Assembly: GCF_005145025.1 (NCBI RefSeq)
Contig: NZ_CP039697.1
Coordinates: 682,001-746,000, forward strand
From: Novosphingobium sp. EMRT-2
GTDB lineage: Bacteria; Pseudomonadota; Alphaproteobacteria; Sphingomonadales; Sphingomonadaceae
Length of the DNA stretch: 64,000 bases
Direction of reading: 5' to 3'
The translations under genes were made by a program, and so were the position numbers. The first letter of the stretch is position 1, and each line of letters starts with the position of its first letter. Positions 16,915 to 36,982 of this stretch are shown here, in pieces. The notes beneath the pieces were generated by a model that did no database searches, was not told the origin of the DNA, and saw only the letters and a list, made by a program, of their open reading frames with translations.

Positions 16915-17784
16915 ATGCTCGACAAGAGGATGCCGCTGGACGCCATCGTGGCGGAACTGGCTGATGGAATGACGATCGCGATCGGCGGCTGGGCCACGCG
17001 GCGCAAGCCGATGGCGCTGGTGCGCGCGATCGCGCGCTCGGGGCTGAAGGACCTGACCGTGATCGCCTATGGTGGGCCAGACGTCGGCATGCTGGCCGCC
17101 TGCGGCAAGCTCCGCCGGCTGGTGTTCGCGTTCGTTTCGCTCGATCACATTCCGATCGAGCCGCATTTCAAGGCCGCGCGCCAGGCGGGGCTGGACGTGT
17201 GGGAAATGGACGAGGGCATGCTGCACTGGGGTCTGCGCGCGGCGGCGATGGGTCTGCCGTTCCTGCCCACCCGCGTCGGCATCGGCACCGCGATTGCCGA
17301 GGATCCGCGCCTGCGGACGGTGAAGAGCCCCTACGACGATGGCGAAACGCTGATCGCGATGCCCGCGATCAAGCCCGACGTGGCGCTGCTGCACGTTCAT
17401 CGCGCCGACGAGAAGGGCAACGTGCTGACGCTTTCGCCCGATCCGTTCTTCGACGAACTGATGGCCCGCGCGGCCGGTCGGACCTTCGTGACCGCCGAAC
17501 AGATCGTACCCACGGCGGACCTGGGCCTGCCCGGCAACGCGCGGTACCACCTGGTCGAGCGGTCGCTGATCAGCGGCGTGGCGCAGGCGCCGTTCGGTGC
17601 GCATCCCACCAGCGCGGCGCCCGATTACCAGATCGATCTCGCGCACCTCAAGGCCTACGCGGCCGCCGAGGGCGAGGCGTGGGATGCCTATCGCCAGCGC
17701 TATGTCGCGGCGGACGAGGGCGCCTATCTCGCGGCGGTGGGCGGGGCGGATGCCATCCGCGCCATTCCCGCGCCGGTCTATTGA
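16915..17784 (+). CDS. ipdA: Steroid C-ring hydrolase, alpha subunit (IpdA-type CoA-transferase fold)
   Basis: 289 residues. Closely resembles mycobacterial IpdA along its length: DKRMPLDAIVAELADGMTIA, GGWATRRKPMALVRAIARSGLKDLTV, YGGPDVGML, and EMDEGML at 97-103, whose glutamate region is the expected active site. IpdAB has a class I CoA-transferase fold but hydrolyses the last steroid ring of the (R)-2-(2-carboxyethyl)-3-methyl-6-oxocyclohex-1-ene-1-carboxyl-CoA (COCHEA-CoA) intermediate. The beta subunit follows after 13 bases. The presence of ipdC and echA20 nearby supports the assignment rather than a ketoacid CoA-transferase. Confidence 0.93.
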   Translation: MLDKRMPLDAIVAELADGMTIAIGGWATRRKPMALVRAIARSGLKDLTVIAYGGPDVGMLAACGKLRRLVFAFVSLDHIPIEPHFKAARQAGLDVWEMDEGMLHWGLRAAAMGLPFLPTRVGIGTAIAEDPRLRTVKSPYDDGETLIAMPAIKPDVALLHVHRADEKGNVLTLSPDPFFDELMARAAGRTFVTAEQIVPTADLGLPGNARYHLVERSLISGVAQAPFGAHPTSAAPDYQIDLAHLKAYAAAEGEAWDAYRQRYVAADEGAYLAAVGGADAIRAIPAPVY

Positions 17785-17797
17785 GGAGACCCGGCCG

Positions 17798-18607
17798 ATG
17801 ACGCAAACCACCGCCACCCTGGCCGACCTGCTCGTGGCGCAGTGCGCCGAAGTCTGGCGCGACGATCCCGAATGGCTGGCGACGGGTATCACGCCGATCC
17901 CGCGCCTGGGCGCCAGCCTCGCCAAGCTGACGTTCAACCCGCGCCTGATGATCACCGACGGCGAGAACATGCTGCTCGAACAACCGGCGCCGATCGGCCC
18001 GCGCGATGGCGGTCCCGTGGTGGAAGGCTGGGCGCCCTATGCCCGCACGTTCGACAACCTGTGGGGCGGGCGCCGGCACGCGCTGGTCGCGCCGGTCCAG
18101 ATCGATCGCTTCGGGCAGACCAACATCAGCGTGATCGGCGATCACGCCCGGCCCAAGGCGGCGCTGCTGGGCGCGCGCGGCTTTCCGGGCAACAGCATAT
18201 CGCACCCCAACAGCTTCTTCTTCCCGCAGCACAACCGCCGCGCGCTGGTGGAAGGCGAAGTCGATTTCGTCTGTTCCGCCGGATACAACCCGGCGCGCTG
18301 GCTGGATGGCCGCAAGCCGCACCGGCTCGATTTGCGGCGGATCGTGACCAACCTGTGTGTGATGGACTTCGGCGGCCCGGATCACGCGATCCGCCTTGTT
18401 TCGCTCCATCCCGGCGTGCCGATGGAGGAAGTGCGGGACAATACCGGTTTCGACCTTGCCGTGCTCGAACAGGGCGTGGGCGAAACGCCTCTGCCCGATG
18501 CCGCAGCGCTGGCCATTATCGCGCGGCTTGATCCGCACAATATTCGTGCCGGTCTGATCAAGGGCAATCCTGCCGCCGTTCGTCCCGCGTCCGTTCGCGC
18601 CATGTGA
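17798..18607 (+). CDS. ipdB: Steroid C-ring hydrolase, beta subunit (IpdB-type)
   Basis: 269 residues, partner of IpdA. Family segments: FNPRLMITDGENMLL, APVQIDRFGQTNISVIGDHARPKAALLGARGFPGNSI, FVCSAGYNPARWLDGRKPHRLDLRRIVTNLCVMDF, and SLHPGVPMEEVRDNTGFDL. As in IpdB, the usual CoA-transferase ENG active-site motif is not evident. Start ATG 17798 lies behind GAGGAG. A hairpin 19 bases after the stop and a new promoter downstream suggest ipdAB is its own transcription unit, although read-through into echA is possible. Confidence 0.92.
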   Translation: MTQTTATLADLLVAQCAEVWRDDPEWLATGITPIPRLGASLAKLTFNPRLMITDGENMLLEQPAPIGPRDGGPVVEGWAPYARTFDNLWGGRRHALVAPVQIDRFGQTNISVIGDHARPKAALLGARGFPGNSISHPNSFFFPQHNRRALVEGEVDFVCSAGYNPARWLDGRKPHRLDLRRIVTNLCVMDFGGPDHAIRLVSLHPGVPMEEVRDNTGFDLAVLEQGVGETPLPDAAALAIIARLDPHNIRAGLIKGNPAAVRPASVRAM

Positions 18608-18625
18608 CGGCTGGCGGCCGAGGGA

Positions 18626-18731: not shown

Positions 18732-19616
18732 ATGAGCCCGGCGGAAATCACCTACGAGACGGACACCCCGGTGCGCTACGATGTGCGCGACGGCGCGGCG
18801 TGGATCACGATGGACCGGCCGCGCTACAACAACGCGCAGAATAGCCAGATGACCTACGCGCTCGATGCGGCGTTCCGGCGCGCGGTCGACGATCCCGCGG
18901 TGAAGGTGATCGTGCTGGCCGGTTCCGGCAAGCACTTCAGCGCCGGGCACGACATCGGCACCCCCGGGCGCGATGTGGCGCGCAGCTTCGATCGCGCGCA
19001 CCTGCTGCCCGATCACGTCGGCCGCCCCGGCGCCGAGATGCTCTACACCCGCGAACAGGAAGTTTATCTCGGCATGTGCCGGCGCTGGCGCGATGTGACC
19101 AAGCCCACCATCGCGATGGTGCAGGGCGCGTGCATTGCCGGCGGGCTGATGCTGGCCTGGGTGTGCGATCTGATCGTCGCTTCGGACGATGCGTTCTTCC
19201 AGGACCCGGTCTCGCGCCTGATGGGCATTCCGGGTGTCGAATACTTTGCGCATGCGTTCGAGCTGCCGCCCCGCGTCGCCAAGGAATTCCTGCTGCTGGG
19301 CGATCGGATGCCGGCACAGCGCGCTTATGATCTCGGCATGGTCAACCTCGTCGTCCCGCGCGACGAACTGGAGCAGGCGACCACGGCGATGGCGGCGAAG
19401 CTTGCGGCCCAGGCCTCGCTGGGCATGTGGCTTACCAAACAGGCGGTGAATCACGTGGAAGACCTGCGCGGCAAGCGCTCCGCCATGGATGCCGCTTTCC
19501 ACATGCACCACTTCGCCCATGCGCAGAACGATCTCGTCACCGGTCACGCGCTGGGCGGCGTCACCGGCAAGAGCGCGGCGGCGGACAACAAGGCGGGCGA
19601 AAAGGCGGGCGCATGA
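18732..19616 (+). CDS. Enoyl-CoA hydratase/isomerase family protein
   Basis: About 294 residues; ATG 18732 is preferred over GTG 18726 because of GGAG seven bases upstream. Crotonase fold: LAGSGKHFSAGHDIG (oxyanion hole), IAMVQGACIAGGLMLAWVCDLIVASDDAFFQDPV. Both catalytic glutamates of classical enoyl-CoA hydratase are absent (GGLML instead of GxEL, QDPV instead of PEI), so simple hydration is doubtful. It is the first gene of the operon 18732-31842 and overlaps ipdC by four bases. A steroid ring-degradation step is likely but the exact reaction is unknown. Confidence 0.88.
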   Translation: MSPAEITYETDTPVRYDVRDGAAWITMDRPRYNNAQNSQMTYALDAAFRRAVDDPAVKVIVLAGSGKHFSAGHDIGTPGRDVARSFDRAHLLPDHVGRPGAEMLYTREQEVYLGMCRRWRDVTKPTIAMVQGACIAGGLMLAWVCDLIVASDDAFFQDPVSRLMGIPGVEYFAHAFELPPRVAKEFLLLGDRMPAQRAYDLGMVNLVVPRDELEQATTAMAAKLAAQASLGMWLTKQAVNHVEDLRGKRSAMDAAFHMHHFAHAQNDLVTGHALGGVTGKSAAADNKAGEKAGA

Positions 19617-20716
19617 CCGATCCGCTCGCCACGCCTCTTGCCGCGCTGCTCGGCTGCCGGCTGCCGGTGATCCAGACCGCGATGGGCTGGATCGCCGAGC
19701 CGGCGCTGGTCGCGGCGACGGTGGAGGCGGGCGGCTTCGGCTTCCTGGGCGCGGCGGTGATGACGCCGGGCGAGGCGGCCGACAAGATCGCGGTGCTGTG
19801 CGGCCTGACTGCGCATCCGTTCGGCGTAAACTTCCATATGTTCCAGCCGGGCGCGGCCGATCTGGTGGAAATCATCGTCGCCAACCGCGATCGGGTGCGG
19901 GCGGTGAGCTTCGGACGGGGGCCGGACGCGAAGATGATCGCCCGCTTCCGCGATGCGGGTATCCTTTGTGTGCCGACGGTGGGCGCGGTGAAGCACGCGC
20001 GCAAGATGGCCGAACTGGGCGTGGATATGGTTGTGGTGCAGGGCGCCGAGGGCGGCGGGCACACCGGTGCGGTGGCGACCACGGTGCTGCTACCGCAGGT
20101 GCTCGACAGCGTGGGCATTCCCGTCGTTGCCGCCGGAGGCTTCGCCGACGGACGTGGGCTGGCGGCGGCGCTGGCTTGGGGCGCGGCCGGCGTGGCCATG
20201 GGCACGCGCTTCCTGATGACGCGCGAGAGCCCGGTGCCTGACGCGGTCAAGCAGCGCTACCTTGCCGCCGGGACCGACGACATCGAGGTTACGCGCACGG
20301 TGGATGGTCTGCCGCAGCGGATGATCCGCAACAAGGCGTTGACCCGCCTGGCCGTCGGCGGCGCGCTGGCCTCATGGCGCAACGCGGTCTCCGCTGGCCT
20401 TGCGATTAAGCGTGCCACCGGCGCATCCTGGGGCGAAATCCTGCGCGCGGCGCAAGGGATGCGTGTGCACGGCGGCTTGACGCTCGCGCAGGCGATGCGT
20501 GCTGCCGCCGCGCCGATGCTGATCCAGCGCGCTGTGGTATCGGGTGACAGTGAGGCTGGGCTGATGGCCACCGGTCAGGTCGCCGGGCGCCTTTCCGATC
20601 TCCCCTCGGTAGCTGACCTGCTCGCTGCGATCGAACATGACGCGCGCGCGCGGCTGGCCGCGCTGTCGCCTGACCCCACGCCCTTGAGCCCCAACCACTT
20701 GAGGATGTCCGCCTGA
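19613..20716 (+). CDS. ipdC: Flavin-dependent IpdC-type enzyme (nitronate monooxygenase family)
   Basis: 367 residues. TIM-barrel FMN protein of the 2-nitropropane-dioxygenase family with LPVIQTAMGWIAEPALV, PTVGAVKHARKM, VVQGAEGGGHTGAVATTVLLP and AAGGFADGRGLAAALAWGAAGVAMGTRFLMT, a pattern close to mycobacterial IpdC (Rv3553). IpdC acts in steroid C/D-ring breakdown between HIP-CoA beta-oxidation and ring opening. Position between crotonase genes and the overlap with both (ATGA at 19613 and 20714-20718) support this over a true nitronate monooxygenase. Confidence 0.92.
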   Translation: MTDPLATPLAALLGCRLPVIQTAMGWIAEPALVAATVEAGGFGFLGAAVMTPGEAADKIAVLCGLTAHPFGVNFHMFQPGAADLVEIIVANRDRVRAVSFGRGPDAKMIARFRDAGILCVPTVGAVKHARKMAELGVDMVVVQGAEGGGHTGAVATTVLLPQVLDSVGIPVVAAGGFADGRGLAAALAWGAAGVAMGTRFLMTRESPVPDAVKQRYLAAGTDDIEVTRTVDGLPQRMIRNKALTRLAVGGALASWRNAVSAGLAIKRATGASWGEILRAAQGMRVHGGLTLAQAMRAAAAPMLIQRAVVSGDSEAGLMATGQVAGRLSDLPSVADLLAAIEHDARARLAALSPDPTPLSPNHLRMSA

Positions 20717-21465
20717 TGCCGGTCCGAATCCATGTCGCCGACCGTATCGGCGAGATCATTTTCGATCATCCGCCCGTGAACGCGCTGGGCAGCGCGGCCT
20801 GGAACGAAGTGCCCGACATCGTGACCGCGATGGGGCGTGATCCCGACGTGCGCTGCGTGCTGATCCGCGCGGAAGGGCGCGGCTTCTGTGGCGGCGTGGA
20901 TATCAAGGAGATGCAAGCGCATCCCGAACGGATCGTGGCGCTCAATCGCGGCAATTTCCGCACGTTCCAGGCGGTGCGCGCGTGCGAGGTGCCCGTGGTC
21001 AGCGCGGTGCATGGCTTCATCATCGGATCGGGCATCGGCATCTGCGGCGCGTCCGATGTGGTGATCGCGGCCGATGACGCGTTCTTTTCGCTGCCCGAGG
21101 TCGATCGCGGCGCGATGGGCGGGGCCAGCCACCTGATGCGGATGTTCCCCCTGCAGAAAGTGCGGGCCGCGTTCTTCACCGGCGGCCGGATAGACGCGGC
21201 GGAGGCCTGGCGCCTTGGCGCGGTCGAAAAGGTCGTCCCGCGTGAAAGCCTGGTCGCGGAAGCGCGGGCGTTCTGCGCGGTGATCGCGGGCAAGAGCCGC
21301 AAGGCGCTGGTCACGGCCAAGGAAGCGTTGAACGGCATCGAGCCGCGCGATGTCGATCATGGCTATCGCTTCGAGCAGGGCTTCACCCTCGAGATGTATC
21401 TTCACGAGGACAGCCAGCGCGCGCGCGATGCCTTCGTGGATACCGGCAAGGCGGCGGCGTTCTGA
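20716..21465 (+). CDS. echA20: Steroid D-ring hydrolase (EchA20-type crotonase)
   Basis: 249 residues, same length as mycobacterial EchA20 and similar throughout: DHPPVNALGSAAWNEV, LIRAEGRGFCGGVDIKEMQ, LPEVDRGAMGGASHLMR, TAKEALNGIEPRDVDHGYRFEQGFTLEMYL. The family lacks the first crotonase Glu (here GSGIGI) and keeps the second (LPEV), as here. EchA20 hydrolytically opens ring D of the HIEC-CoA intermediate. Starts with ATG overlapping the ipdC stop; the next gene starts two bases after its stop. Confidence 0.93.
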   Translation: MPVRIHVADRIGEIIFDHPPVNALGSAAWNEVPDIVTAMGRDPDVRCVLIRAEGRGFCGGVDIKEMQAHPERIVALNRGNFRTFQAVRACEVPVVSAVHGFIIGSGIGICGASDVVIAADDAFFSLPEVDRGAMGGASHLMRMFPLQKVRAAFFTGGRIDAAEAWRLGAVEKVVPRESLVAEARAFCAVIAGKSRKALVTAKEALNGIEPRDVDHGYRFEQGFTLEMYLHEDSQRARDAFVDTGKAAAF

Positions 21466-21467
21466 CC

Positions 21468-22628
21468 ATGGACATTCGCTATACGCCCGAGGAGCAGGCC
21501 TTCCGCGTCGAAGTGCGGCGCTGGATGGCGGCGCATGTTCCCGCGCAACCGCTTCCCGATTTCGATTCCACGCGCGAAGGCTTCGAAGCGCATCGCCAGT
21601 GGGAGCGCACGCTGCACGCGGGCGGCTGGGGCATGGTCACCTGGCCGGTCGAATATGGCGGGCGCGGGCTCGACCTGATCCGCTGGCTGATCTTCGAGGA
21701 GGAATATTATCGCGCGGGTGCTCCGGGGCGGGTCAACCAGAACGGCATCTTCCTGCTAGGCCCGACGCTGATCGAATACGGCACGCCCGAGCAGAAGGCC
21801 CGGTTCCTGCCGGCAATGGCGGCGGGCGACCATATCTGGGCGCAGGCCTGGTCCGAGCCGGGCGCGGGCAGCGACTTGGCCGGCGTGCGTTCTACCGCCG
21901 TTCGCGATGGCGATGATTACGTCCTGTCTGGTCACAAGATTTGGTCCTCGCGCGCGGTCCATGCGGACTGGGCGTTCGGCCTTTTCCGCGCGCCGGGCAG
22001 CGAGCGGCACAAGGGGTTGTCGCTGATCCTGTTCCCGCTCGATGCGGCGGGCGTCACCGTGCGGCCGATCCAGCGCCTCGACGGAAAGCCCGTCTTCGCC
22101 GAGCTGTTCCTCGATAACGTGCGCGTGCCCGTTGCGAACCGCCTGGGCGACGAAGGGCAGGGCTGGGCGGTGTGCATGTCCACCGCCGGGTTCGAGCGCG
22201 GGCTGATGCTGCGCAGCCCGGCGCGATTCCAGGTTGCGGCGGCGAAGCTGGTCGATCTGTACCGCGCGCGCGCTGGCGCGGCCGATCCGGCGTTGGGTGC
22301 CGCGGTGGCGCAGGCGTGGATGGACGCCGATGCCTATGCGCTGTCGATCTATGCCACCGCCAGCCGGCTGATGGCCGGCGGGACGATCGGGCCGGAAACC
22401 AGCACCAACAAGATATTCTGGTCCGAGTTGGATCTCGACCTGCACAAGACCGCGCTGGCGTTGCTCGGTGCCGAGGCGGAACTGACCGCCGCCGCGCCCG
22501 ATGCTTCCGCCGATGTGGGCGACTGGCTCGACGGTTACATCTTCTCGCTGGCCGGTCCGATCTATGCTGGCGCCAACGAAATCCAGCGCAACATCATCGC
22601 CGAGCGGATGCTCGGCCTACCGAGGTGA
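21468..22628 (+). CDS. Acyl-CoA dehydrogenase, FadE30-like
   Basis: 386 residues. Motifs: WPVEYGGRGLDLIRWLIFEEEYYRAGAPGRVN, WSEPGAGSDLAGV, GHKIWSS, and the end YAGANEIQRNIIAERMLGLPR, very like mycobacterial FadE30, which desaturates HIP-CoA. The usual C-terminal catalytic Glu is Ala (YAGAN); Glu243 in the GFERG motif is the candidate base. Forms a pair with the short dehydrogenase that starts four bases after it. Inferred role: first beta-oxidation step on HIP-CoA or a later ring-derived acyl-CoA. Confidence 0.9.
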   Translation: MDIRYTPEEQAFRVEVRRWMAAHVPAQPLPDFDSTREGFEAHRQWERTLHAGGWGMVTWPVEYGGRGLDLIRWLIFEEEYYRAGAPGRVNQNGIFLLGPTLIEYGTPEQKARFLPAMAAGDHIWAQAWSEPGAGSDLAGVRSTAVRDGDDYVLSGHKIWSSRAVHADWAFGLFRAPGSERHKGLSLILFPLDAAGVTVRPIQRLDGKPVFAELFLDNVRVPVANRLGDEGQGWAVCMSTAGFERGLMLRSPARFQVAAAKLVDLYRARAGAADPALGAAVAQAWMDADAYALSIYATASRLMAGGTIGPETSTNKIFWSELDLDLHKTALALLGAEAELTAAAPDASADVGDWLDGYIFSLAGPIYAGANEIQRNIIAERMLGLPR

Positions 22629-22632
22629 TGGC

Positions 22633-23667
22633 ATGGACTTCCGCCTGACCGACGAACAGACGATGCTGGCCGAAGCCGTCGGCGCTTTGCTGCACGATTG
22701 CTGCAGCGGCGCGGACTTGCGCCGATTGCTGGAAAGTGGCGCGGCGCGCGATGCCGGGCGCTGGGCGCAGATCGAGGCGATGGGCCTGCCGCTGATGCTC
22801 GCGCCGGAAGCGCGCGGCGGCAGCGGGCTGGGGATGGTCGAGATGGCGCTGGTCGCGATCGCCTGCGGCCATGCCGCGCTGCCCGAACCGCTGGTGGAGC
22901 ACGCGGGCATCGCCGTGCCGGCGCTGGTGGCGGCCGGGCGCGACGTTCCGGCGGGCACCGTTGCGGTCGGCCATCCGGTTAACCCGTTCGTCGCCGATGC
23001 CGATACCGCCGAAGCGCTGTTGCTGGCGGATGGGGATGCGATGCATCTGGTGCCGCGTGCTGCGGTAACGCTGGTGCGGCAGGACAGCATCGATCCCTTC
23101 CGCCGCCTGTTCCGCGTGGACTGGAAGCCCGCGCCCGCAACGCGCACCGGTGGCGCCGCGCTGTGGGAGGCGGCATTGGAGCGGGGTGCGCTGTTGGCGG
23201 CGGCGCAATTGCTGGGCTTGGCGCAGCGCGCGGTCGATATTTCCGTGGCCTATACGAAGGAGCGTCAGCAATTCGGCAAGCCGATCGGGTCGTTCCAGGC
23301 GGTGAAGCACCATCTGGCGTCGGCGCAGGTGAAGATAGAATTTGCGCGGCCGGTGGTGCTGGCGGCGGCGGCGCTGCCCGCTTCGTCGCTCGCCCGCGCC
23401 CGGGTCAGCCATGCCAAGCTTGCCGCGCAGGCCGCCGCAGACGCGGCCAGCCATGCCGCCGTACAGGTCCACGGGGCGATGGGCTATTCGTGGGAGGTCG
23501 ACGTGCATTTCGTGCTCAAGCGGGCGCTGGCGCTGGGGCAGGCGTGGGGCACGCCTGGCTTTCACCGCGCGCGCGTGGCTGAGCACATGCTTTCCGCGCC
23601 GCTGGGTCCGGATCGTACCTTCGACGCGGTACCGCTGCAGCAGGAGGCGCGCAGTGAAGCCGCTTGA
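22633..23667 (+). CDS. Acyl-CoA dehydrogenase, short subunit
   Basis: 344 residues starting MDFRLTDEQTML. N-terminal domain LMLAPEARGGSGLGMVEMALVAIACGHAALPEPL; reduced middle domain without the SEPGSGSD flavin loop; C-terminal ERQQFGKPIGSFQAVKHHLA and VQVHGAMGYSWEVDVHFVLKR. This is the layout of the second subunit of heteromeric steroid dehydrogenases (FadE31-33 style). The gene overlaps the ligase start by 14 bases. A second such long/short pair is at 4709-6891. Confidence 0.88.
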   Translation: MDFRLTDEQTMLAEAVGALLHDCCSGADLRRLLESGAARDAGRWAQIEAMGLPLMLAPEARGGSGLGMVEMALVAIACGHAALPEPLVEHAGIAVPALVAAGRDVPAGTVAVGHPVNPFVADADTAEALLLADGDAMHLVPRAAVTLVRQDSIDPFRRLFRVDWKPAPATRTGGAALWEAALERGALLAAAQLLGLAQRAVDISVAYTKERQQFGKPIGSFQAVKHHLASAQVKIEFARPVVLAAAALPASSLARARVSHAKLAAQAAADAASHAAVQVHGAMGYSWEVDVHFVLKRALALGQAWGTPGFHRARVAEHMLSAPLGPDRTFDAVPLQQEARSEAA

Positions 23668-26073: not shown

Positions 26074-26077
26074 CCAC

Positions 26078-27235: not shown

Positions 27236-27238
27236 TCG

Positions 27239-27658: not shown

Positions 27659-27660
27659 CC

Positions 27661-29076: not shown

Positions 29077-29087
29077 CGGAGGGCGCG

Positions 29088-30016: not shown

Positions 30017-30031
30017 AAACCGAAGGATACC

Positions 30032-30814
30032 ATGTCGACACCGCTCAAGACCCTGTTCGATCTCACGGGCCGCACCGCGCTTGTCACCGGCGGTTCGCGC
30101 GGGCTCGGACTCACGATGGCCGAGGCGCTCGGCGAGTTCGGCGCGCGGGTGATCGTTACCGCGCGCAAACAGGCCGAACTGGACAAGGCCGTAGCGCACC
30201 TCTCCGCCCTTGGCATCGCGGCCAGCGCGATCGCCGCCGACGTCGGCAAGCCCGAAGCGGCGCAGCAGATCGTCGATGCGGTCAAGGCGGATGGTGGACG
30301 GATCGACATCCTCGTCAACAACGCCGGAACCTCGTGGGGATCGAAGACCGAGGAGATGCCCCTCGATGCATGGAACAAGCTGCTGGCGGTCAATCTCACC
30401 GGTCCATTCCTGCTGGCGCAGGCCGTCGCGCGCGAATTCATGCTGCCGGCGGGCTGGGGGCGGATCGTCAACATCGCCTCGGTCGAAGGGTTGCTTGGGC
30501 ACCATCCGCGCATGATTGGCACGATTGCCTACAACGCCAGCAAGGGCGGCCTGATCAACTTCACGCGCGCGCTGGCGGCGGAATGGGGCGGGCGCGGCGT
30601 GACCGTCAACGCGCTGGCGCCGGGCTACTTCCCGTCCAAGCTGACCGGCTACGTGCTCGACAAGCATGGCGAGGAATTGCGCCACGATACGCCCAGCGGC
30701 CGGCTCGGCTGCGACGACGACCTCAAGGGCGCGACACTGCTGCTGGCGTCCGACGCCGGGGCACACATCACCGGGCAGGTGTTGCCCGTCGATGGCGGCG
30801 CATCGATTATCTGA
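30032..30814 (+). CDS. Short-chain dehydrogenase/reductase
   Basis: 260 residues. GGSRGLGLTMAEALGEFGARVIVTAR (cofactor), LVNNAGTSWG, NIASVEGLLGHHPRMIGTIAYNASKGGL (catalytic Ser/Tyr/Lys), and C-terminal ITGQVLPVDGGASII. The insertion before the Tyr (HHPRMIGTI) matches the gluconate-5-dehydrogenase/RhlG-like subgroup. Fifteen bases after the previous SDR with an AAGGA site, so the two are a tandem pair in the operon. Predicted to oxidise or reduce a ring or side-chain hydroxyl; substrate inferred only. Confidence 0.88.
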   Translation: MSTPLKTLFDLTGRTALVTGGSRGLGLTMAEALGEFGARVIVTARKQAELDKAVAHLSALGIAASAIAADVGKPEAAQQIVDAVKADGGRIDILVNNAGTSWGSKTEEMPLDAWNKLLAVNLTGPFLLAQAVAREFMLPAGWGRIVNIASVEGLLGHHPRMIGTIAYNASKGGLINFTRALAAEWGGRGVTVNALAPGYFPSKLTGYVLDKHGEELRHDTPSGRLGCDDDLKGATLLLASDAGAHITGQVLPVDGGASII

Positions 30815-30837
30815 ACGCAAAACGTGGGGAGGTTACG

Positions 30838-31842
30838 ATGAATGCACCCAGTCGTTTCGGCACGCGCTATCCGTTTCATCCCTATCCGACAGGGTGGTTC
30901 AGCGTGGGTTTCGCGGAGGATCTGGAGCCGGGAGACGTCCGGCCCCTGCGCTATTTCGGCAAGGATCTGGTCTTGTTTCGCACGCAGGGCGGCGAGGTGG
31001 CGGTGACCGATGCGCATTGCCCGCATCTGGGCGCGCATCTCGGCTATGAAAGCTGGGTGGAGGGCGAGACGCTGGTCTGCCCGTTCCACCAGTGGCGCTA
31101 CGATACCGGTGGCAAGTGCGTTAGCGTGCCGTTCTCCCGCACGGTACCCCCGCGCGCGAAAGTGCGCAAGTGGCCGACGCTGGAGCGCGGCGGCATGATT
31201 TTCATCTGGCACGACCTCGAAGACCGCGAGCCTGCGTGGGAACTGCCCGCGTTCGACGAAAGCCGCCGCATTCCCGATGCGGGCTTTCGCAAGCTGCACG
31301 ACGATTTCGGATCGGCACACCCGCAGGACGTGTTCGAGAACGGCGTCGATTTCGCGCATTTCCCCGGCGTCCATTCCACCGGCCGCGCGGTCAGCAACGG
31401 CGCGATCCGCGCCGACGGCGTCCGCTTCTTCAGCCCGGTGCGCATCCTCCCCGCGGGATACGACGGACCGGTGGAAGGCGTGGACGTCGGTTCGACGGTT
31501 GATTCCGAAGTGATCGGCGGCGGTCTTTCGCGCGTGGAGAGCCGCACGCCGCACGCACCGGGCATTGTCACAGTGTACTATGTCTCGGTGACACCGGTGG
31601 ATGCCAATCTCAGCCATTACTATGTCCACCAGTTCTTCCTGCGTGACGACGATTGCCCGATGACGGAAGAGCAAATCGCGGCGTTCACGGCGCTGGCGGC
31701 CGAGCACGGCCTCAAGGAGCAGTGGAGCGACGGCAAGATCTGGCCGTTCAAGGCCTATGTCGAACAGCCGCTGCTGAGCGCGGTGGACGGGCCGATCCTC
31801 AAGTATCGCGACTGGTACAAGCAGTTCCACCCGGCTGTGTGA
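30838..31842 (+). CDS. Rieske non-heme iron oxygenase, KshA/DAF-36-like
   Basis: 334 residues. Rieske centre CxH-x17-CxxH with C61, H63, C81, H84 (AHCPHLGAHLG and CPFHQW). The catalytic iron site is in ENGVDFAHFPGVHS (H174, H179 plus a later carboxylate). The VRKWPTLERGGMIFIWHD segment is shared with 3-ketosteroid 9alpha-hydroxylase KshA and the cholesterol 7-desaturase group. It would hydroxylate a sterol nucleus using an external reductase; no KshB-type reductase gene is in the window. GGGGAGG six bases before the ATG; last gene of the operon, followed by a terminator. Confidence 0.9.
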   Translation: MNAPSRFGTRYPFHPYPTGWFSVGFAEDLEPGDVRPLRYFGKDLVLFRTQGGEVAVTDAHCPHLGAHLGYESWVEGETLVCPFHQWRYDTGGKCVSVPFSRTVPPRAKVRKWPTLERGGMIFIWHDLEDREPAWELPAFDESRRIPDAGFRKLHDDFGSAHPQDVFENGVDFAHFPGVHSTGRAVSNGAIRADGVRFFSPVRILPAGYDGPVEGVDVGSTVDSEVIGGGLSRVESRTPHAPGIVTVYYVSVTPVDANLSHYYVHQFFLRDDDCPMTEEQIAAFTALAAEHGLKEQWSDGKIWPFKAYVEQPLLSAVDGPILKYRDWYKQFHPAV

Positions 31843-31887: not shown

Positions 31888-31893
31888 GTGCGC

Positions 31894-31946: not shown

Positions 31947-32813
31947 CTATTCCGCCGCTTCCGCCTGGGGCTCCGGCTCGGGCTCGAAGGTCGGCACCTG
32001 CTCGCTCCAGTAGGCGGATTCGCGCGAGGTATCGATCGTGCGCGCACCGCGCACGCCGAACTTGCGGCGCGCTTCTTCCAGCGGCAGGTCCAGCCATTCC
32101 TCGTAGCGCGGCAGGAACAGGGCGTCGGATTGCTCGCCCACCTTCATCGCATAGTGCGCCAGGTCGAACATCCGCAGCGTCAGTTCGGGATAGTGCAGCG
32201 GCCCGCGCATGAACATCGGGATCGTCAGCAACGTGTTCTGCACGTTGAGCAGCCCGGCCAGTTCTGGCCCGAAGTGGCGGAACAGGTTCCCGTATTTGAG
32301 GAACGCCGGCATGATCTCGCCGATCCCGTCGAACCCGCCGCCCGAGAGGATGTGCATGATGTCATGCGTCTGTACGCCGCGCAGGAAGAAGTACTCGAAG
32401 CCCGATCGCGGCTCGAACGTGGGGATGATGTCCACTTCCATGCCCGCGCCGACCAGCCATTGGTACCAGATGCCGCCGACCGAGCCTTCCGGGCACGATT
32501 TCATGTCCTCGCGCGTCAGCCGCGCCAGCCAGCGATCGTCGAGCCACTTGTCGAATTCCGGCCAGGTTCGCCGGGCTTCGTTGAACAGGTCCTCGATGCG
32601 GCCGTGGTCCTGCACCTCGCGCACCGCCTCTATCAGCGAGGGGATGCCATACGTGACGGGGTAGTCGCGGCCATTGCGCTTGAGGCACTGCGTGGTGACC
32701 CATTCGCGGATGCGGGGGTCGTTGAGATACTTCGACGAGCTGATCAGCACACTGCTCGTTGTCTCCACCTTCTGCCGCCCGCGCTGGAGATAGGGCAGTT
32801 CTTCTTCGTTCAT
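31947..32813 (-). CDS. Coq4-family protein
   Basis: 288 residues from MNEEELPYLQ, with GAGG eight bases upstream on the minus strand. Contains the Coq4 metal motif HDxxHx11E in THDIMHILSGGGFDGIGEI. Coq4 binds zinc or iron and lipids and acts in ubiquinone ring modification. This copy is longer than typical Coq4 (about 220-265), with a C-terminal acidic tail (EPEPEPQAEAAE), and sits 31 bases after the amidohydrolase gene, not near ubiquinone genes, so it is probably a catabolic paralogue. Function unknown. Confidence 0.85.
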   Translation of the reverse strand: MNEEELPYLQRGRQKVETTSSVLISSSKYLNDPRIREWVTTQCLKRNGRDYPVTYGIPSLIEAVREVQDHGRIEDLFNEARRTWPEFDKWLDDRWLARLTREDMKSCPEGSVGGIWYQWLVGAGMEVDIIPTFEPRSGFEYFFLRGVQTHDIMHILSGGGFDGIGEIMPAFLKYGNLFRHFGPELAGLLNVQNTLLTIPMFMRGPLHYPELTLRMFDLAHYAMKVGEQSDALFLPRYEEWLDLPLEEARRKFGVRGARTIDTSRESAYWSEQVPTFEPEPEPQAEAAE

Positions 32814-32844: not shown

Positions 32845-34581
32845 TCATGCTGCCGCGACCGCGATTTTCTGGATGGCGGGGCCGACGAACTCGCCGGGAA
32901 GTTCCCCGGTAAACGCGCCGTTCTCGAATGTCGGCACGCCGTTGACGAGCGTGAGGCGCATCGGTGCGGCATCGCGGGTGAACCGCCAGGTAAAGCCGCC
33001 CTTGCCGTCCGGCACGTCGAACACGCGCCGCAGGGGGCGGGCCTCGATCTCGTCGAGGTGGAACACCGCGATGTCGGCCCGATAGCCGGGCTTGAGCACG
33101 CCGCGGTCGCTGAAATTGAAATGTTCTGCCTGCTTGCCCGTCTGCGCATGGATCGCCTCTTCCAGCGTCAGTTCCTTGTCGCGGAAGAAGCGCGTGATGA
33201 GCAGGATGTTCTCGCCGCCGCCGCACAGCATTTGCCCGTGGGCGCCGGCGTCGGAAATGTTGGCCACGGTCTGGCTCATCCGGATGAGATCGACCGTCTT
33301 GTCGAAGTGCATGGCGTGCGGCACGCGGTTGACGATCGACCCGACCCCGTTCGCCAGCACCCAGTCGGCCAGCGCGTCGGACGGGTGCTTGCCCGTCTGT
33401 TCGGCCAGGTCCTTCAGACTCAGCCCAAGCGGGCCGGCGCCGGTTTCTGAATCCATCAGCAACATCATGTGCGGATTCGCCACGAGCGACTGGCGGAAGG
33501 CCTTGTTGTCCCAGCTGTCACGGGCGCGGGCGCGGAAGTTCTCGTCCTGGAGCAGCGCGATCTTTTCCTCGGTTGTCGGGGCCTGAACGATCTCGTGCCA
33601 CACGTATTCGTTGGCCTGCGCGAACGAGGAACTGCTGAAGAAGTTGAGCGCCGTGGTGGGCGGAACGTGGGCAAAGCTCGGCCAGAAATCGAGCCCTTCC
33701 TGGCGTTGTTGCTCGGAAATCTCCCACATCCGGTCGCGGATCGAATCCTGGAAATGCAGCAGGCCGGCTGCGCCCGCCATCTGCACGCGCACGCCCAGCC
33801 CCCGGCACAGGTTGCCGAGCCGCTCCATCTGTTCGGGCGCCTTCAGCTTGAAGAAGGTATCCAGAATGACCTGCAACTGGCTGCCCGGGCGGCTGGCGAG
33901 CACGCCGATCAGCGCGGTCCATTCGGCATCGTCGGCGACAAGGCTCGGCACCGGACGATCCTTGCTGTCATGGTCCATCAGGTTGGACGACATGCCCAGC
34001 GCACCGGCATCGATGGCATCTTCCAGCAGCGCGCACATCTTGCGGATTTCGTCGGGAGTCGCCGCGCGATCCCAAGCGTCCATGCCCATCACGGCAAGGC
34101 GGATGGCGATGTGCCCGGCATAGCCGGCGATGTTCGTGGAAACCTTGCACTTCGCCTGCATCGAGGCGCGGTATTCGGACCAGGTGCTCCAGTCCCAGGG
34201 CAGGATGTCCAGGAACGGCTTTTCGGCGACTTCCTCGAAGAACGAGAAGATCTTGACCATTTCCATCCGAATTTCGGGATCGGCGTGGACGGGCGCGGCG
34301 GTAAAGCCGCAGTTGCCGATGACCACGGTGGACACGCCATAGCCGGGCAGCGGATCGAGATCGGGCTGCCACCACATCACCGCGTCCATGTGGGTATGCG
34401 GCTCGATGAACCCGGGGGATACAATGCAATCCTTCGCATCGACCACACGTTCGCCGGCAGCATCCGCCAGTCCGGGCGCGATCTCCGCGATGAAGCCATC
34501 CTTCACGCGAACGTCAGCAGCATAGGCTGGTGCGCCAGTGCCATCGACGACGGTTCCCCCCTTGATCAGAATATCGGTCAT
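32845..34581 (-). CDS. N-acyl-D-amino-acid deacylase-type amidohydrolase
   Basis: 578 residues of the D-aminoacylase branch of the amidohydrolase superfamily: ILIKGGTVVDGTGAPAYAADV, SPGFIEPHTHMDAVMWW (metal HxH), NCGFTAAP, and late ISDAGAHGQM plus LKPGYRADIAVF. Family members cleave amides or lactams; in catabolic clusters related proteins are often annotated but untested on steroid or terpenoid substrates. First gene of a two-gene minus-strand unit with the Coq4-like gene, under the palindromic promoter at 34617-34641. Confidence 0.88.
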   Translation of the reverse strand: MTDILIKGGTVVDGTGAPAYAADVRVKDGFIAEIAPGLADAAGERVVDAKDCIVSPGFIEPHTHMDAVMWWQPDLDPLPGYGVSTVVIGNCGFTAAPVHADPEIRMEMVKIFSFFEEVAEKPFLDILPWDWSTWSEYRASMQAKCKVSTNIAGYAGHIAIRLAVMGMDAWDRAATPDEIRKMCALLEDAIDAGALGMSSNLMDHDSKDRPVPSLVADDAEWTALIGVLASRPGSQLQVILDTFFKLKAPEQMERLGNLCRGLGVRVQMAGAAGLLHFQDSIRDRMWEISEQQRQEGLDFWPSFAHVPPTTALNFFSSSSFAQANEYVWHEIVQAPTTEEKIALLQDENFRARARDSWDNKAFRQSLVANPHMMLLMDSETGAGPLGLSLKDLAEQTGKHPSDALADWVLANGVGSIVNRVPHAMHFDKTVDLIRMSQTVANISDAGAHGQMLCGGGENILLITRFFRDKELTLEEAIHAQTGKQAEHFNFSDRGVLKPGYRADIAVFHLDEIEARPLRRVFDVPDGKGGFTWRFTRDAAPMRLTLVNGVPTFENGAFTGELPGEFVGPAIQKIAVAAA

Positions 34582-34616: not shown

Positions 34617-34641
34617 ATTATAGCTAACATTGCAATGTTAG
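34617..34641 (-). promoter_or_regulatory. Promoter with perfect 18-base palindromic operator
   Basis: On the minus strand a perfect -10 TATAAT (complement of 34617-34622) lies two bases after CTAACATTGCAATGTTAG (34624-34641), a perfect inverted repeat that would occupy the spacer and cover most of the -10/-35 interval. The -35 itself is poor. It is 36 bases before the ATG of the amidohydrolase and overlaps the stop codon of the upstream ribB. A 15/18 match lies in the spacer of the promoter at 18673, so both units probably share one repressor. Confidence 0.75.
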
Positions 34642-35780
34642 ATGTCGTCGGTCAGAGGCCGTTGGTCGACGATTTCGATCCCGTAGCCATCCAGCCCGAT
34701 GAAGCTGGTCTCGCTGTTGCTGAGCAGCACGATGCGGTGGATGCCGAGATCGGTGAGTACTTGCGCGCCGATCCCGTATTCCCGCACGGCGACATGCCGG
34801 CCAGCGCTTTCCTCGCGCCCCGCTTCGCGTGCGCGGATGATGCAGCCAACCAGATCGGGCGCGGGCGAACTGAGCACGATGACCACGCCGCTGCCTTCCT
34901 GCGCGATCCGTTCCATCGCGCGTTCCAGAAGGCCCGAGCGGGGGTCGTCCTCTGCCAGCAGATCCGCAAGCGGCGAATGGACATGCATCCGCGTCAGCAC
35001 CGGGCTATCCTGATCGACGGTGCCCTTGACCAGCGCGACGATTTCCGCGCCGGTCACGGTGTTGCGATAGGACATGATCCGCCAGTCGCCCGAATGCTTG
35101 CTGCGGAACGGCATTTCCGCGCGGCGTTCGACCAGATGGTCGTGCCGACGGCGATAGGCGATGAGATCGCGGATCGTCCCGATCTTGAGACCGTGGTCCT
35201 GCGCATAGGGAATAAGGTCGTCGAGCCGGGCCATCGTCCCGTCCTCGTTGAGAATCTCGCAGATGACGCCCGATGGGTTGAGGCCCGCCAGCCGGGCGAC
35301 ATCGACTGCCGCTTCCGTATGCCCGGCGCGCACCAGCACGCCGCCATCGCGCGCCACCAGTGGAAAGACATGCCCCGGCGTGACGATGTCCGCGCGTGTC
35401 CGGGCCGCGTCGATCGCCACCGCGATGGTGCGGGCGCGGTCCGCTGCCGAAATGCCTGTGGTCACGCCGTCGCGCGCTTCGATCGAGACCGTGAAAGCGG
35501 TTTCGAACGGCGATCCGTTGCGGCGGCTCATCGGCTCCAGGCCAAGCTGTTCCGACCGGTCCCGCGTCATCGCCAGGCACACGAGGCCGCGCCCGTACCG
35601 CGCCATGAAATTGATCGCGTCGGGCGTCGCCATTTGCGCGGGGATGACGAGATCGCCTTCGTTCTCGCGATCCTCGTCATCGACCAGAATGAACATCCGG
35701 CCGTTGCGTGCTTCGTTGATGATTTCCTCGGGCGTCGCCAGGAAGCGATGGCGCAGCGCTATCGGAGCCAGCGCGGTCAT
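34638..35780 (-). CDS. ribB: 3,4-dihydroxy-2-butanone-4-phosphate synthase with degenerate GTP-cyclohydrolase-II domain
   Basis: 380 residues. The N-terminal RibB domain is intact: DDEDRENEGDLVIPA (active-site acids), SRRNGSPFETAFTVSIEA, TPGHVFPLVARDGGVLVRAGHTEAAVDVARLAG. The C-terminal half has the GCH-II fold outline (GDWRIMSYRN, GIGAQVLTDLGIHRIVLLS, GLDGYGIEIV) but none of its zinc cysteines (MHVHSPLADLLAEDDP where the CxxGDxxxSxRCDC segment belongs). Only the RibB activity of riboflavin synthesis is expected. It is translationally coupled to the thiolase upstream (TGATG), so flavin precursor supply appears tied to this flavoenzyme-rich pathway. Confidence 0.92.
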   Translation of the reverse strand: MTALAPIALRHRFLATPEEIINEARNGRMFILVDDEDRENEGDLVIPAQMATPDAINFMARYGRGLVCLAMTRDRSEQLGLEPMSRRNGSPFETAFTVSIEARDGVTTGISAADRARTIAVAIDAARTRADIVTPGHVFPLVARDGGVLVRAGHTEAAVDVARLAGLNPSGVICEILNEDGTMARLDDLIPYAQDHGLKIGTIRDLIAYRRRHDHLVERRAEMPFRSKHSGDWRIMSYRNTVTGAEIVALVKGTVDQDSPVLTRMHVHSPLADLLAEDDPRSGLLERAMERIAQEGSGVVIVLSSPAPDLVGCIIRAREAGREESAGRHVAVREYGIGAQVLTDLGIHRIVLLSNSETSFIGLDGYGIEIVDQRPLTDDI

Positions 35781-36982
35781 CACAGCACCTCGAACAGTCC
35801 GGCGGCGCCCATGCCGCCGCCGACGCACATCGTGATCACGACATAGCGCACACCTCGCCGCTTTCCCTCGATCAGCGCGTGCCCGACCATGCGCGCGCCC
35901 GACATGCCGAACGGGTGCCCGATGGAAATTGCGCCGCCATCGACGTTGAGGCGGTCGTCGGGAATGCCGAGCCTGTCACGGCATGGCAGCACTTGCGCGG
36001 CGAACGCTTCGTTCAGTTCCCACAGGCCGATATCGTCGATCGTCAGGCCATGTTGCGCCAGCAGCCTGGGCACCGCATGGATCGGTCCGATGCCCATTTC
36101 CTCGGGCGGGCAGCCCGCCACGGCCATGCCGCGATACGCGCCCAGCGGCGTCAGCCCCTCGCGCGCGGCAACCCCCGCTTCGACCAGCACGCACGCGGCG
36201 GCACCATCGGACAGCTGGCTGGCGTTGCCAGCAGTGATGAACTGGCCAGGCCCCTTCAGTTCGCCGCCGGTCCAGACCGGTTTTAAGCTGGAGAGGCCGT
36301 CAAGCGTGGTTTCGGCGCGGGGACCTTCGTCGCGGTCGAGCGTGACGGTGCGTTCGCTCTGCTCGCCGGTGGTCTTGTCGGTCACGATCATGCGCGTGGC
36401 CAGCGGCGCCAGCTCCGCGTCGTAGCGTCCGGCGGCGTAGGCGGCCGCGGTCCGCTGCTGGCTTTGCAAGGCATAGGCGTCTTGCGCCTCGCGGCTGATG
36501 CCATAGCGTTCCGAGACGACTTCTGCGGTTTCGATCATCGCCATGTACATGTGCGGGCTGTGCGCCAGAACCGCTTCGGACTGCGCGCGATAGCCGTTTT
36601 TGTGCGCGTTCTGCGTCAGGCTGATCGATTCGACACCGCCGCCCACCACCACATCCATGCCGTCGTGCATGATCTGCTTCGCGGCGGTGGCGATCGCCAT
36701 CAGCCCCGACGCGCACTGGCGATCCAGCGACATGCCGGCGGCGCTGTCGGGCAGGTCCGCCGCCGCCGCCGTCAGCCGGCCGATGTTGTAGCCCTGCGTC
36801 CCCTGCTGCGCGGCGCAGCCCATGATCACGTCTTCCACGCGCGCCGGATCGAGCCCCGCCCGCCGCACCGCTTCGGCCACGGCATGGCCCGACAGCAACG
36901 GGGCCTCGGCGTTGTTGTAGGCGCCGCGATAGGCCTTCCCGATCGGAGTCCGGGCGGTGGAGACGACAAGGGCTTCGCGCAT
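35780..36982 (-). CDS. Acetyl-CoA C-acyltransferase (thiolase)
   Basis: 400 residues. Catalytic residues all visible: Cys90 in DRQCASG, NEAFA, His in [16 protein letters not shown] and Cys in [10 protein letters not shown]. Catalyses thiolytic cleavage of a 3-ketoacyl-CoA in beta-oxidation. In the actinobacterial steroid cluster the corresponding step belongs to FadA5 or FadA6; this one could fill either. First gene of a minus-strand unit with ribB; start ATG complement at 36980-36982 behind AAGGA. Confidence 0.93.

What the first reader, a model, noticed from the sequence alone, without database searches (positions are those of the whole stretch)
16915..36982. A steroid C/D-ring (HIP) catabolic locus with several non-standard passengers
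IpdA, IpdB, IpdC and EchA20 homologues lie together, each recognisable by family segments along the protein (seen in the sequence). Established knowledge links this quartet to the last two steroid rings. Fourteen genes (18732-31842) have gaps of at most 23 bases or overlaps and end at a terminator. Beyond the known set the locus holds a second CoA ligase of PaaK type, an Ltp/DUF35 pair, a KshA-like oxygenase, a D-aminoacylase-type amidohydrolase, a Coq4 paralogue and RibB. That mix is not the actinobacterial order and may define a sphingomonad version of the pathway.
Basis: partly seen in the sequence, partly recalled or inferred. Interest (0 to 1): 0.75.

Follow-up and report, generated by a model that had tools for sequence, protein, structure and literature searches.

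The report
Steroid C/D-ring genes without A/B-ring genes
A bacterium, probably a Novosphingobium, carries genes of the kind that finish off the last two rings of steroids, but the usual genes for the first two rings were not found; instead they sit inside a conserved gene island whose enzymes suggest a different route for taking apart some steroid-like compound.

Summary
The genes are as described: 14 tightly packed genes (18732-31842) ending at a terminator-like hairpin, with genuine IpdA, IpdB, IpdC and EchA20. The reading "HIP locus, sphingomonad version" is only half right. The known sphingomonad steroid (SD) cluster shares a seven-gene block (IpdA-IpdB-ECH-IpdC-EchA20-IpdE1-IpdE2) and a thiolase with this locus. 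HsaC, HsaA, FadD3 and KstD, found in every SD genome compared, were not found in this genome. The block sits in an island conserved in Sphingomonadaceae and Caulobacterales: a PtmU3/DitZ-like putative dinuclear oxygenase, two CoA ligases, a crotonase, an Ltp2-type retro-aldolase with DUF35 partner, a luciferase-like enzyme resembling a progesterone Baeyer-Villiger enzyme, amidohydrolase, Coq4-like, RibBA and SDRs. Three genomes carry the island without the block, but have an SD cluster. I conclude that the island is an alternative upper pathway, not via A-ring aromatisation, delivering a steroid-like bicyclic intermediate to the Ipd enzymes; the substrate, perhaps a terpenoid or modified steroid, is unknown. 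Against: some SD clusters carry the same IpdA type, and four of six island genomes in a family sample also have steroid genes.

The parts
11137..13407 (+). TonB-dependent receptor, probable uptake
   Evidence: Pfam TonB receptor and plug; a relative lies in the island stretches of 7 of the 9 genomes
13410..14225 (+). short-chain dehydrogenase missed by the gene caller (exact start not fixed)
   Evidence: 54-92% identical to an SDR in the islands of 8 other genomes
14455..15594 (+). MFS transporter
   Evidence: Pfam MFS_1; relatives beside the island
15671..16825 (+). AmH2: PF04909 protein, probable amidohydrolase-related dinuclear oxygenase (PtmU3/DitZ/SfbO type)
   Evidence: Best PDB sequence hits PtmU3 and DitZ; fold search ranks PtmU3 1 and DitZ 2-3; D14, H16, E19, H210, E259, D326, H329 invariant in 22 of 22 aligned homologues
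16915..17784 (+). IpdA
   Evidence: best PDB hits 6con/6co6 IpdAB
17798..18607 (+). IpdB
   Evidence: best PDB hits 6con/6co6 IpdAB
18732..19616 (+). ECH-A, crotonase (position of ScdN)
   Evidence: NF006140 above cut-off; same place and 67-77% identity in the 6 SD clusters where it is in view
19613..20716 (+). IpdC
   Evidence: NMO/FabK families; 53-69% identity to IpdC of 6 SD clusters, 52% to a cut piece in G018
20716..21465 (+). EchA20
   Evidence: NF005925 above cut-off; 70-76% identity in 7 SD clusters
21468..22628 (+). IpdE1-like acyl-CoA dehydrogenase
   Evidence: Pfam ACAD domains; 65-76% identity in 7 SD clusters
22633..23667 (+). IpdE2-like acyl-CoA dehydrogenase
   Evidence: best NCBIfam match IpdE2, 130 bits, below its 450-bit cut-off; 43-57% in 7 SD clusters
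23654..25279 (+). FadD, acyl-CoA ligase, not FadD3
   Evidence: FadD3 family 202 bits against cut-off 657
25276..26073 (+). ECH-B, crotonase of the movable core module
   Evidence: directly before Ltp in 25 of 29 loci
26078..27235 (+). Ltp, Ltp2-type retro-aldolase
   Evidence: best PDB hit TcLtp2 6ok1; Y289, D290, C291, F292 and Y339 in 31 of 31 loci, Gly at the place of the thiolase nucleophile
27239..27658 (+). DUF35 partner without zinc-binding cysteines
   Evidence: Pfam OB_ChsH2_C; a single Cys
27661..29076 (+). PaaK-type CoA ligase
29088..29249 (+). 53-residue conserved small protein
   Evidence: found behind PaaK in 11 of 29 loci
29246..30016 (+). SDR1
   Evidence: near the core module in most loci
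30032..30814 (+). SDR2
   Evidence: NF006070 above cut-off
30838..31842 (+). KshA-like Rieske oxygenase, optional part of the island
   Evidence: KshA_C 85 bits; best PDB KshA 4qdc E 1.5e-38; Rieske motif and a DxxHxxxxH-like motif present; the only KshA_C protein over cut-off in the genome
31853..31883 (+). terminator-like hairpin with T run
31947..32813 (-). Coq4-like protein
   Evidence: Pfam Coq4 28.6 bits, cut-off 22.9
32845..34581 (-). AmH3, D-aminoacylase-type amidohydrolase
34638..35780 (-). RibBA, flavin supply
   Evidence: both domains
35780..36982 (-). FadA thiolase, counterpart of the SD-cluster FadA
   Evidence: 54-66% to the SD thiolase in 6 of 7 genomes
37262..38392 (+). luciferase-like monooxygenase (376 aa with corrected start)
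   Evidence: 60% over its whole length to an LLM of G024 with a pdc-like neighbourhood, the neighbours read by eye
38482..39150 (+). SDR3
39178..40095 (-). DHDPS-family aldolase
   Evidence: in 7 of the 9 genomes
43024..43941 (-). AbH3, esterase/lipase-type hydrolase
   Evidence: relatives in islands
44082..47789 (+). ACAD4, SDR4 and APH-type kinase
   Evidence: all three in G041, G044 and G046, some of them in G042 and G048
49620..50879 (-). cytochrome P450
   Evidence: 69-85% relatives near the island in G041, G042, G046 and G048
8661..9761 (-). ACAD3, beside APH in other island genomes

Best explanation
This is a catabolic island for a polycyclic, steroid-like compound, probably a terpenoid. 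Shown: it joins (a) a seven-gene C/D-ring block related to that of steroid clusters with (b) a different upper module, in a genome where the marker genes of the 9,10-seco pathway were not found. Inferred mechanism: the compound enters by the TonB receptor and MFS carrier; P450, Rieske and SDR enzymes oxidise it; FadD and PaaK make CoA esters; AmH2 hydroxylates an unactivated carbon next to a blocked position (as its relative PtmU3 does, recalled); Ltp/DUF35 splits the resulting or ECH-made beta-hydroxyacyl-CoA by retro-aldol cleavage, leaving a ketone; the luciferase-like enzyme, fed by flavin from RibBA and a flavin reductase, inserts oxygen next to a ketone and AbH3 cleaves the ester. A bicyclic keto-acyl-CoA of the HIC-CoA kind results. 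IpdC desaturates it, EchA20 opens one ring, IpdAB the other, and FadA, IpdE1/E2 and ECH-A finish by beta-oxidation. The exact substrate is not known; a triterpenoid, diterpenoid or side-chain-bearing steroid fits best.
For: SD clusters of 7 relatives share the 7-gene block and a FadA thiolase with the window; the HIP genes that follow the block there are replaced. HsaC, HsaA, FadD3 and KstD not found in G000. Island conserved in 9 further genomes (8 of the 9 fetched, and G015), with another order in three Caulobacterales and single genes missing in some. S. jatrophae (G147) and G352 have AmH2 joined directly to FadD without the block, and an SD cluster elsewhere. In 298 genomes of the family, 6 of 6 with the Ltp module have an IpdA, against 41 of 298 overall (Fisher p 4.9e-6, relatedness not corrected). 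Of 29 PaaK-module loci I searched the genomes of 23 for IpdA: 12 of 12 that show the luciferase-like gene have IpdA of 55% identity or more, against 2 of 11 others (p 6.7e-5). IpdC, EchA20 and ECH-A of island and SD type differ at no group-specific residue. Ltp2 tyrosines invariant in 31 of 31; AmH2 ligand candidates invariant in 22 of 22; nearest folds PtmU3 and DitZ.
Against: No substrate, transcript or metabolite was measured. Four of the 6 island genomes in the family sample (G147, G196, G316, G352) also have HsaA, so the substrate may be a steroid after all. AmH2 identity to PtmU3 and DitZ is only 22-26%, and no small Rieske ferredoxin, the ARO neighbour described in PMC10811679, is among its named neighbours. 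SD clusters of G269, G336 and G293 carry the same or nearly the same IpdA residues, so the island IpdAB may simply act on HIP-derived COCHEA-CoA. Four genomes of another genus (G161, G223, G272, G345) also have IpdA without HsaA at the thresholds used, so decoupling is not unique to the island. The order of steps is inferred. The Rieske gene is missing from several islands. Absence rests on similarity thresholds; genes of the 2,3-seco and 4,5-seco routes were not searched for.
Confidence: 0.55

Rival explanations
1. HIP scavenger: the strain does not degrade whole steroids but takes up HIP or similar C/D-ring fragments released by other steroid degraders. FadD activates HIP, ECH-B, Ltp/DUF35 and SDRs remove the propionate chain by an aldol instead of a thiolase step, PaaK re-activates the shortened acid, and the Ipd block does the rest.
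For: Complete Ipd block while HsaC, HsaA and KstD were not found; two CoA ligases, as in aldolase-type side-chain routes (PMC12882949 passages); TonB receptor and MFS carrier in front.
Against: Does not explain the putative dinuclear oxygenase, Rieske, P450, luciferase-like enzyme, esterase or kinase; the island is kept alongside SD genes in G042, G046, G057, G058 and G352, where HIP is presumably already handled; no FadD3 and no close HIP-dehydrogenase homologue (best 35-37%) in G000.
Confidence: 0.15
2. Steroid locus after all: the A/B-ring functions are encoded by divergent genes or by a seco route not searched for, and the island is a variant steroid or bile-acid cluster converging on HIP.
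For: Ipd block related to SD blocks; luciferase-like enzyme 60% identical to an LLM with a pdc-like neighbourhood, whose C. tardaugens counterpart acts on progesterone (PMC12239570 passages); Rieske of the KshA family; 4 of 6 island genomes in the family sample also have HsaA.
Against: Genome rated 100% complete, yet HsaC, HsaA, FadD3 and KstD were not found at the levels seen in every SD genome compared.
Confidence: 0.17
3. The Ipd block has been retooled for a bicyclic or monocyclic non-steroid terpenoid (for example a decalin resin acid or an apocarotenoid such as abscisic acid), with changed specificity centred on IpdAB.
For: Of 14 residues that separate 10 island from 9-15 SD proteins (by gene), 12 lie in IpdA and IpdB (close SD relatives left out); AmH2 resembles DitZ; the core module alone occurs in 9 genomes without IpdA above 35%, so it handles something by itself.
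Against: The same IpdA residues and part of the IpdB residues occur in SD clusters beside TesB; S. jatrophae and G352 keep the island with only SD-type IpdAB.
Confidence: 0.13

Closest known systems
SD (steroid degradation) cluster of Novosphingobium/Caenibius tardaugens and scd genes of Comamonas testosteroni TA441
   Same: Seven genes in the same order, matching scdL1L2 (ipdAB), scdN, scdK (ipdC), scdY (echA20) and an IpdE1/E2 pair, and a FadA thiolase (gene roles from PMC13101464 abstract and introduction and PMC6895838 passages; the two named clusters themselves were not aligned here)
   Different: No TesB, TesA2, TesD, FadD3 or HIP thiolase beside the block; a different downstream module; island blocks form one clade in a 26-member tree
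ChsH2-Ltp2 / Shy-Sal steroid side-chain aldolases
   Same: Thiolase-like protein with an adjacent DUF35 partner; the Tyr of the YDxF motif and the second Tyr of TcLtp2 both present
   Different: Cys in place of the TcLtp2 His in YDHF (as in CtSal), DUF35 without zinc-binding cysteines, a crotonase instead of a MaoC hydratase next to it
Amidohydrolase-related dinuclear oxygenases (PtmU3, AibH2, SfbO; PMC10811679) and DitZ
   Same: Fold; Glu ahead of the W-V/L motif and a DYPH motif in five of five printed alignments, DYPH shifted against SfbO
   Different: 20-26% identity; no small Rieske ferredoxin among the named neighbours; substrate unknown
pdc luciferase-like Baeyer-Villiger monooxygenase of C. 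tardaugens (progesterone)
   Same: 60% identity to an LLM of G024 that lies beside a regulator-like and a BVMO-like gene, both read by eye
   Different: No such neighbours in the window; identity to the C. tardaugens protein itself was not computed
bsd I bile-salt side-chain cluster of sphingomonads (PMC12882949)
   Same: CoA ligase, acyl-CoA dehydrogenases, an amidohydrolase and an esterase-like gene in one cluster (passages)
   Different: bsd I has SclA, Scd4AB and a MaoC-like hydratase; the window has PaaK, Ltp, DUF35 and the Ipd block

Membership tests
IpdAB ring-C hydrolase | sequence nearer to solved IpdAB than to CoA transferases | tested here: met
   E 3.8e-69 and 1.2e-52 to 6con against 1e-25 and 1.7e-13 for the next families
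IpdAB ring-C hydrolase | loss of the catalytic Glu of the beta subunit of CoA transferases (Gly57 in RHA1; PMC5380842 passage) | not tested
   no residue-level alignment to 6con_B was made
Ipd/Scd C/D-ring block | IpdA-IpdB-ECH-IpdC-EchA20-IpdE1-IpdE2 in order | tested here: met
Sphingomonad SD (HIP) cluster | TesB, TesA2 and TesD beside the block | tested here: not met
   none among the neighbours of the block; in the genome no HsaC at E 1e-10, HsaA 26%; TesD was not searched genome-wide
Sphingomonad SD (HIP) cluster | FadD3 HIP-CoA ligase | tested here: not met
   over cut-off in 10 of 10 SD genomes and 0 of 9 island-only genomes
9,10-seco steroid pathway | 3-ketosteroid delta-1-dehydrogenase | tested here: not met
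   no NF009478 match at E 1e-100 in G000; 10 of 10 SD genomes and 3 of 9 island-only genomes have one, only one of all matches over the curated cut-off
9,10-seco steroid pathway | KshA oxygenase | tested here: inconclusive
   family match only; activity and reductase partner unknown
Ltp2-type steroid aldolase | catalytic Tyr pair and no nucleophilic Cys | tested here: met
   31 of 31 loci, residues as in PMC12329534 (passages)
Ltp2-type steroid aldolase | zinc-binding DUF35 partner | tested here: not met
   DUF35 is adjacent but has one Cys only
ARO dinuclear oxygenase | three carboxylate and three His ligands | tested here: inconclusive
   fitting invariant residues and motifs, but ligation was not modelled and the N-terminal motif lies outside the printed alignments
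ARO dinuclear oxygenase | oxygenase activity | not testable with these tools
   needs protein
Abietane dit cluster | ring-hydroxylating dioxygenase DitA and ring-cleavage DitC | not tested
   no such gene named among the 50 of 57 called window genes scanned with Pfam; the genome was not searched for them

The most novel reading that the evidence does not exclude
The island encodes a complete aerobic route for a polycyclic terpenoid that never aromatises a ring: ring opening by dinuclear-oxygenase hydroxylation next to a CoA-activated carboxylate followed by Ltp2/DUF35 retro-aldol cleavage, then the steroid-type C/D-ring block. It would be a further entry into the steroid C/D-ring pathway besides the 9,10-seco, 4,5-seco and 2,3-seco routes.
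Probability: 0.3. Interest if true: 0.8.

Novelty: new variant of a known kind. Interest (0 to 1): 0.58.

Why it matters
IpdAB, IpdC and EchA20 are taken as signs of steroid degradation in genomes. Here they occur, well conserved, in genomes where the marker genes of the 9,10-seco pathway were not found, so such readings could be wrong for these bacteria. The island also offers testable genes for how bacteria break down terpenoids rich in quaternary carbons, a process whose best known case, the dit pathway, is itself only partly resolved (PMC13063091 passages).

Tried and rejected
Considered and set aside: (1) that the passengers are chance neighbours: rejected, they recur in 9 further genomes (8 of the 9 fetched; the stretch of the ninth, G057, held only IpdA and IpdB; and G015). 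(2) That percent identity of IpdA alone separates island from steroid clusters, my first reading: rejected after searches showed IpdA of 63-67% beside TesB and TesA2 in G269, G336 and G293; a tree was built instead. (3) That IpdAB residues prove a new substrate: weakened. My first residue comparison gave no group-specific residue in any of the seven proteins, because the close SD relatives were in the SD group; one search left out G336, G269, G283, G237, G293 and G057 and relaxed the threshold to 90%, which must be borne in mind. (4) Abscisic-acid and vitamin D degradation were thought of from general knowledge and not tested. (5) The D-aminoacylase-type gene as an amide hydrolase: possible, since D-aminoacylases were among cholate-induced genes in C. 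tardaugens (PMC12882949 passage); not pursued. (6) A tRNA scan found nothing. (7) Literature: searches were aimed at the island; among the rows listed (15 of 915, 5 of 5, 15 of 41, 2 of 2 and 15 of 12,527) none had a title or abstract start describing it. They cover open-licence papers only, and the bile-salt paper on strain Chol11 (PMC8552905) is not held. The tree root rests on one long branch, G052c; only the split of 10 island from 16 SD blocks is robust.


Full report
What is there. The window is G000:C3:682001-746000 of a 4.77-Mb genome rated 100% complete.

The core four are real. IpdA and IpdB have solved IpdAB as nearest structures by a wide margin. IpdC and EchA20 fit by family and by place. 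Two further genes, IpdE1- and IpdE2-like, complete a seven-gene block in the order of the scd genes of Comamonas (gene roles from PMC13101464, abstract and introduction read, and PMC6895838, passages).

Comparison with the known sphingomonad cluster. Tblastn of all called window genes against regions of seven relatives (G007, G003, G004, G024, G018, G001, G037) finds the block in each; it is cut by a contig end in G018 and G001. There it is followed by a thiolase, an SDR, two acyl-CoA dehydrogenases, an SDR and, where in view and identified, FadD3; the window's FadA has a 54-66% counterpart in 6 of the 7. In G007, G024 and others the block is preceded by TesB and divergent TesA2, TesD and further Tes genes. 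This is the layout reported for the SD cluster of N. tardaugens, and for Sphingomonas sp. KC8 and A. estronivorus (PMC6895838 passages). [quoted passage not shown] whether those are relatives of the Ltp/DUF35 pair here was not tested. In the window the downstream SD genes do not follow the block.

The steroid A/B-ring genes were not found in this genome. HsaC: none at E 1e-10 in G000. Of 20 genomes, the 8 with SD-type IpdA have it (39-100% identity); of the 12 others, three have a distant homologue (32-36%) and nine none. HsaA: 53-100% in the same 8, at most 42% elsewhere, 26% in G000. FadD3 over its curated cut-off: 10 of 10 SD genomes, 0 of 9 island-only genomes. KstD at E 1e-100: 10 of 10 SD, 3 of 9 island-only, not G000. 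The nearest relatives in G000 of the HIP-CoA dehydrogenase of G007 have 34-37% identity. The only KshA_C protein over cut-off in G000 is the one in the locus. Genes of the 2,3-seco and 4,5-seco routes were not searched for.

The island. Homologues of the PaaK-type ligase (426 proteins significant among 7,997 scored, 120 listed) led to 29 named loci. Around them the order ECH-B, Ltp, DUF35, PaaK, SDR recurs. In Sphingomonas populi, S. colocasiae, a Sphingopyxis MAG, Sphingobium sp. CECT 9361, Novosphingobium sp. MD-1, a Sphingomonadaceae MAG and a Sphingomonadales MAG the Ipd block precedes it; in Pseudolabrys, Bosea, Alsobacter, Oceanibacterium and Burkholderiales no Ipd gene is in view. I searched the genomes of 23 of the 29 loci for IpdA: 9 of these, from the latter groups, have none above 35%. 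Wider stretches of nine genomes show the island in eight: TonB receptor, SDR, MFS, AmH2, Ipd block, FadD, ECH-B, Ltp, DUF35, PaaK, small protein, SDR1, SDR2, optional Rieske, SDR3, luciferase-like, FadA, RibBA, AmH3, Coq4-like, DHDPS-like, GntR, nitroreductase-like, LysR, esterase, ACAD4, SDR4, APH, ACAD3, RidA, aminotransferase, P450, not every gene in each. The stretch of the ninth, G057, held only IpdA and IpdB. In three Caulobacterales genomes (G049-G051) the genes are in another order.

The Ipd block is the exchangeable part. In S. jatrophae (G147, the same genome as G058) and G352, AmH2 is followed directly by FadD, the rest of the island is there, and an SD cluster lies elsewhere. C. 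estronivorus (G057, the same as G196) has the island without the block, an SD cluster and one extra IpdAB pair. In 298 genomes of the family IpdA (E 1e-60) occurs in 41 and the Ltp module (E 1e-100) in 6, all 6 with an IpdA (Fisher p 4.9e-6; relatedness is not corrected for). Among the 23 genomes, 12 of 12 with the luciferase-like gene in view have IpdA of 55% identity or more, against 2 of 11 others (p 6.7e-5). The island therefore seems to need Ipd chemistry, from whichever source. Against a wholly separate role: 4 of those 6 island genomes (G147, G196, G316, G352) also have HsaA, 40 of 298 having it overall; and 6 of the 41 IpdA genomes lack HsaA at E 1e-100, G000 and G075 with the island but also four of one other genus (G161, G223, G272, G345) without the Ltp module.

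Descent and residues. A tree of six concatenated Ipd proteins (26 sets, 1,875 columns) puts the 10 island blocks in one clade with support 100, nested beside the SD blocks of G269 and G336 if rooted on G052c. With the closest SD relatives left out, island and SD proteins differ at 5 fixed residues in IpdA, 7 in IpdB, 1 each in IpdE1 and IpdE2 and none in ECH-A, IpdC and EchA20 (with those relatives kept in, none at all). The island IpdA residues, and part of the IpdB ones, occur in SD clusters of G269, G336 and (one residue off, IpdA only) G293, and in second copies in G283 and G237 beside an AmH2-like gene, a ligase-like gene and a luciferase-like gene. So the residues mark descent and do not prove a new substrate.

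Clues to the upper chemistry. Ltp: nearest structure TcLtp2; the catalytic Tyr294 and Tyr344 of TcLtp2 and Cys304 of CtSal (PMC12329534, passages) correspond to Y289, Y339 and C291, invariant in 31 of 31 loci, with Gly where SCP2 thiolases have the nucleophilic Cys. [quoted passage not shown] AmH2: nearest structures by sequence and by predicted fold (mean pLDDT 84.5) are PtmU3 and DitZ, then SfbO, with AibH2 and an uncharacterised amidohydrolase among the next (PMC10811679 parts 1-2 of 3 read); mononuclear decarboxylases follow with lower but still significant scores. Dehydroabietic acid products of P. abietaniphila carry a 5-alpha-hydroxyl (PMC13063091 passages), which is where a PtmU3-like enzyme would act by my recollection. 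Luciferase-like enzyme: 60% identical to an LLM in G024 that lies beside a regulator-like gene and a BVMO-like gene, both judged by eye from their sequences, resembling the pdc cluster, whose LLM turns progesterone into testosterone acetate (PMC12239570 passages); RibBA would supply flavin.

Judgement. That much I hold at about 0.7. The full mechanism and substrate class are held at 0.55 and below. Known parts in a new combination make it a new variant of a known kind.

Noticed in passing
L190 (G283) 9373-16399 and L192 (G237) 8858-16088: A second IpdA-IpdB pair stands beside an AmH2-like gene (25% identity), a ligase-like gene (by eye), a crotonase and a luciferase-like gene (60%), in genomes that also have another IpdA and HsaA: possibly a further Ipd-dependent pathway.
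   Followed up: partly
G161, G223, G272, G345 (one other genus of the family; no window coordinates): Four genomes have IpdA of 54-55% identity but no HsaA at E 1e-100 and no Ltp module: another case of Ipd genes without the A-ring oxygenase, not examined.
   Followed up: no
window 27239-27658: The DUF35 partner lacks the zinc-binding cysteines described for ChsH2 and Shy DUF35 domains; 18 of 31 homologues lack even its single Cys.
   Followed up: partly
window 29088-29249: A conserved 53-residue protein without family match sits between PaaK and SDR1; role unknown.
   Followed up: no
window 4751-6891 and 10102-10605: An acyl-CoA dehydrogenase pair and a flavin reductase upstream are shared with Novosphingobium sp. 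MD-1 but were not labelled in the stretches of nine other genomes.
   Followed up: no
window 44082-47789 and 8661-9761: An APH-type kinase with acyl-CoA dehydrogenases, an arrangement recalled from 4-hydroxyacyl-CoA degradation, lies near the core module in Pseudolabrys and Bosea too.
   Followed up: no
L206 (G052, Rhodospirillales MAG): An SD-like cluster with TesD-G genes contains APH and ACAD3 relatives (56% and 66%), a mixture of steroid and island genes.
   Followed up: no
window 40320-53542: GntR, LysR, TetR and IclR regulators lie downstream; which of them controls the island, and whether any resembles KstR2, was not tested.
   Followed up: no
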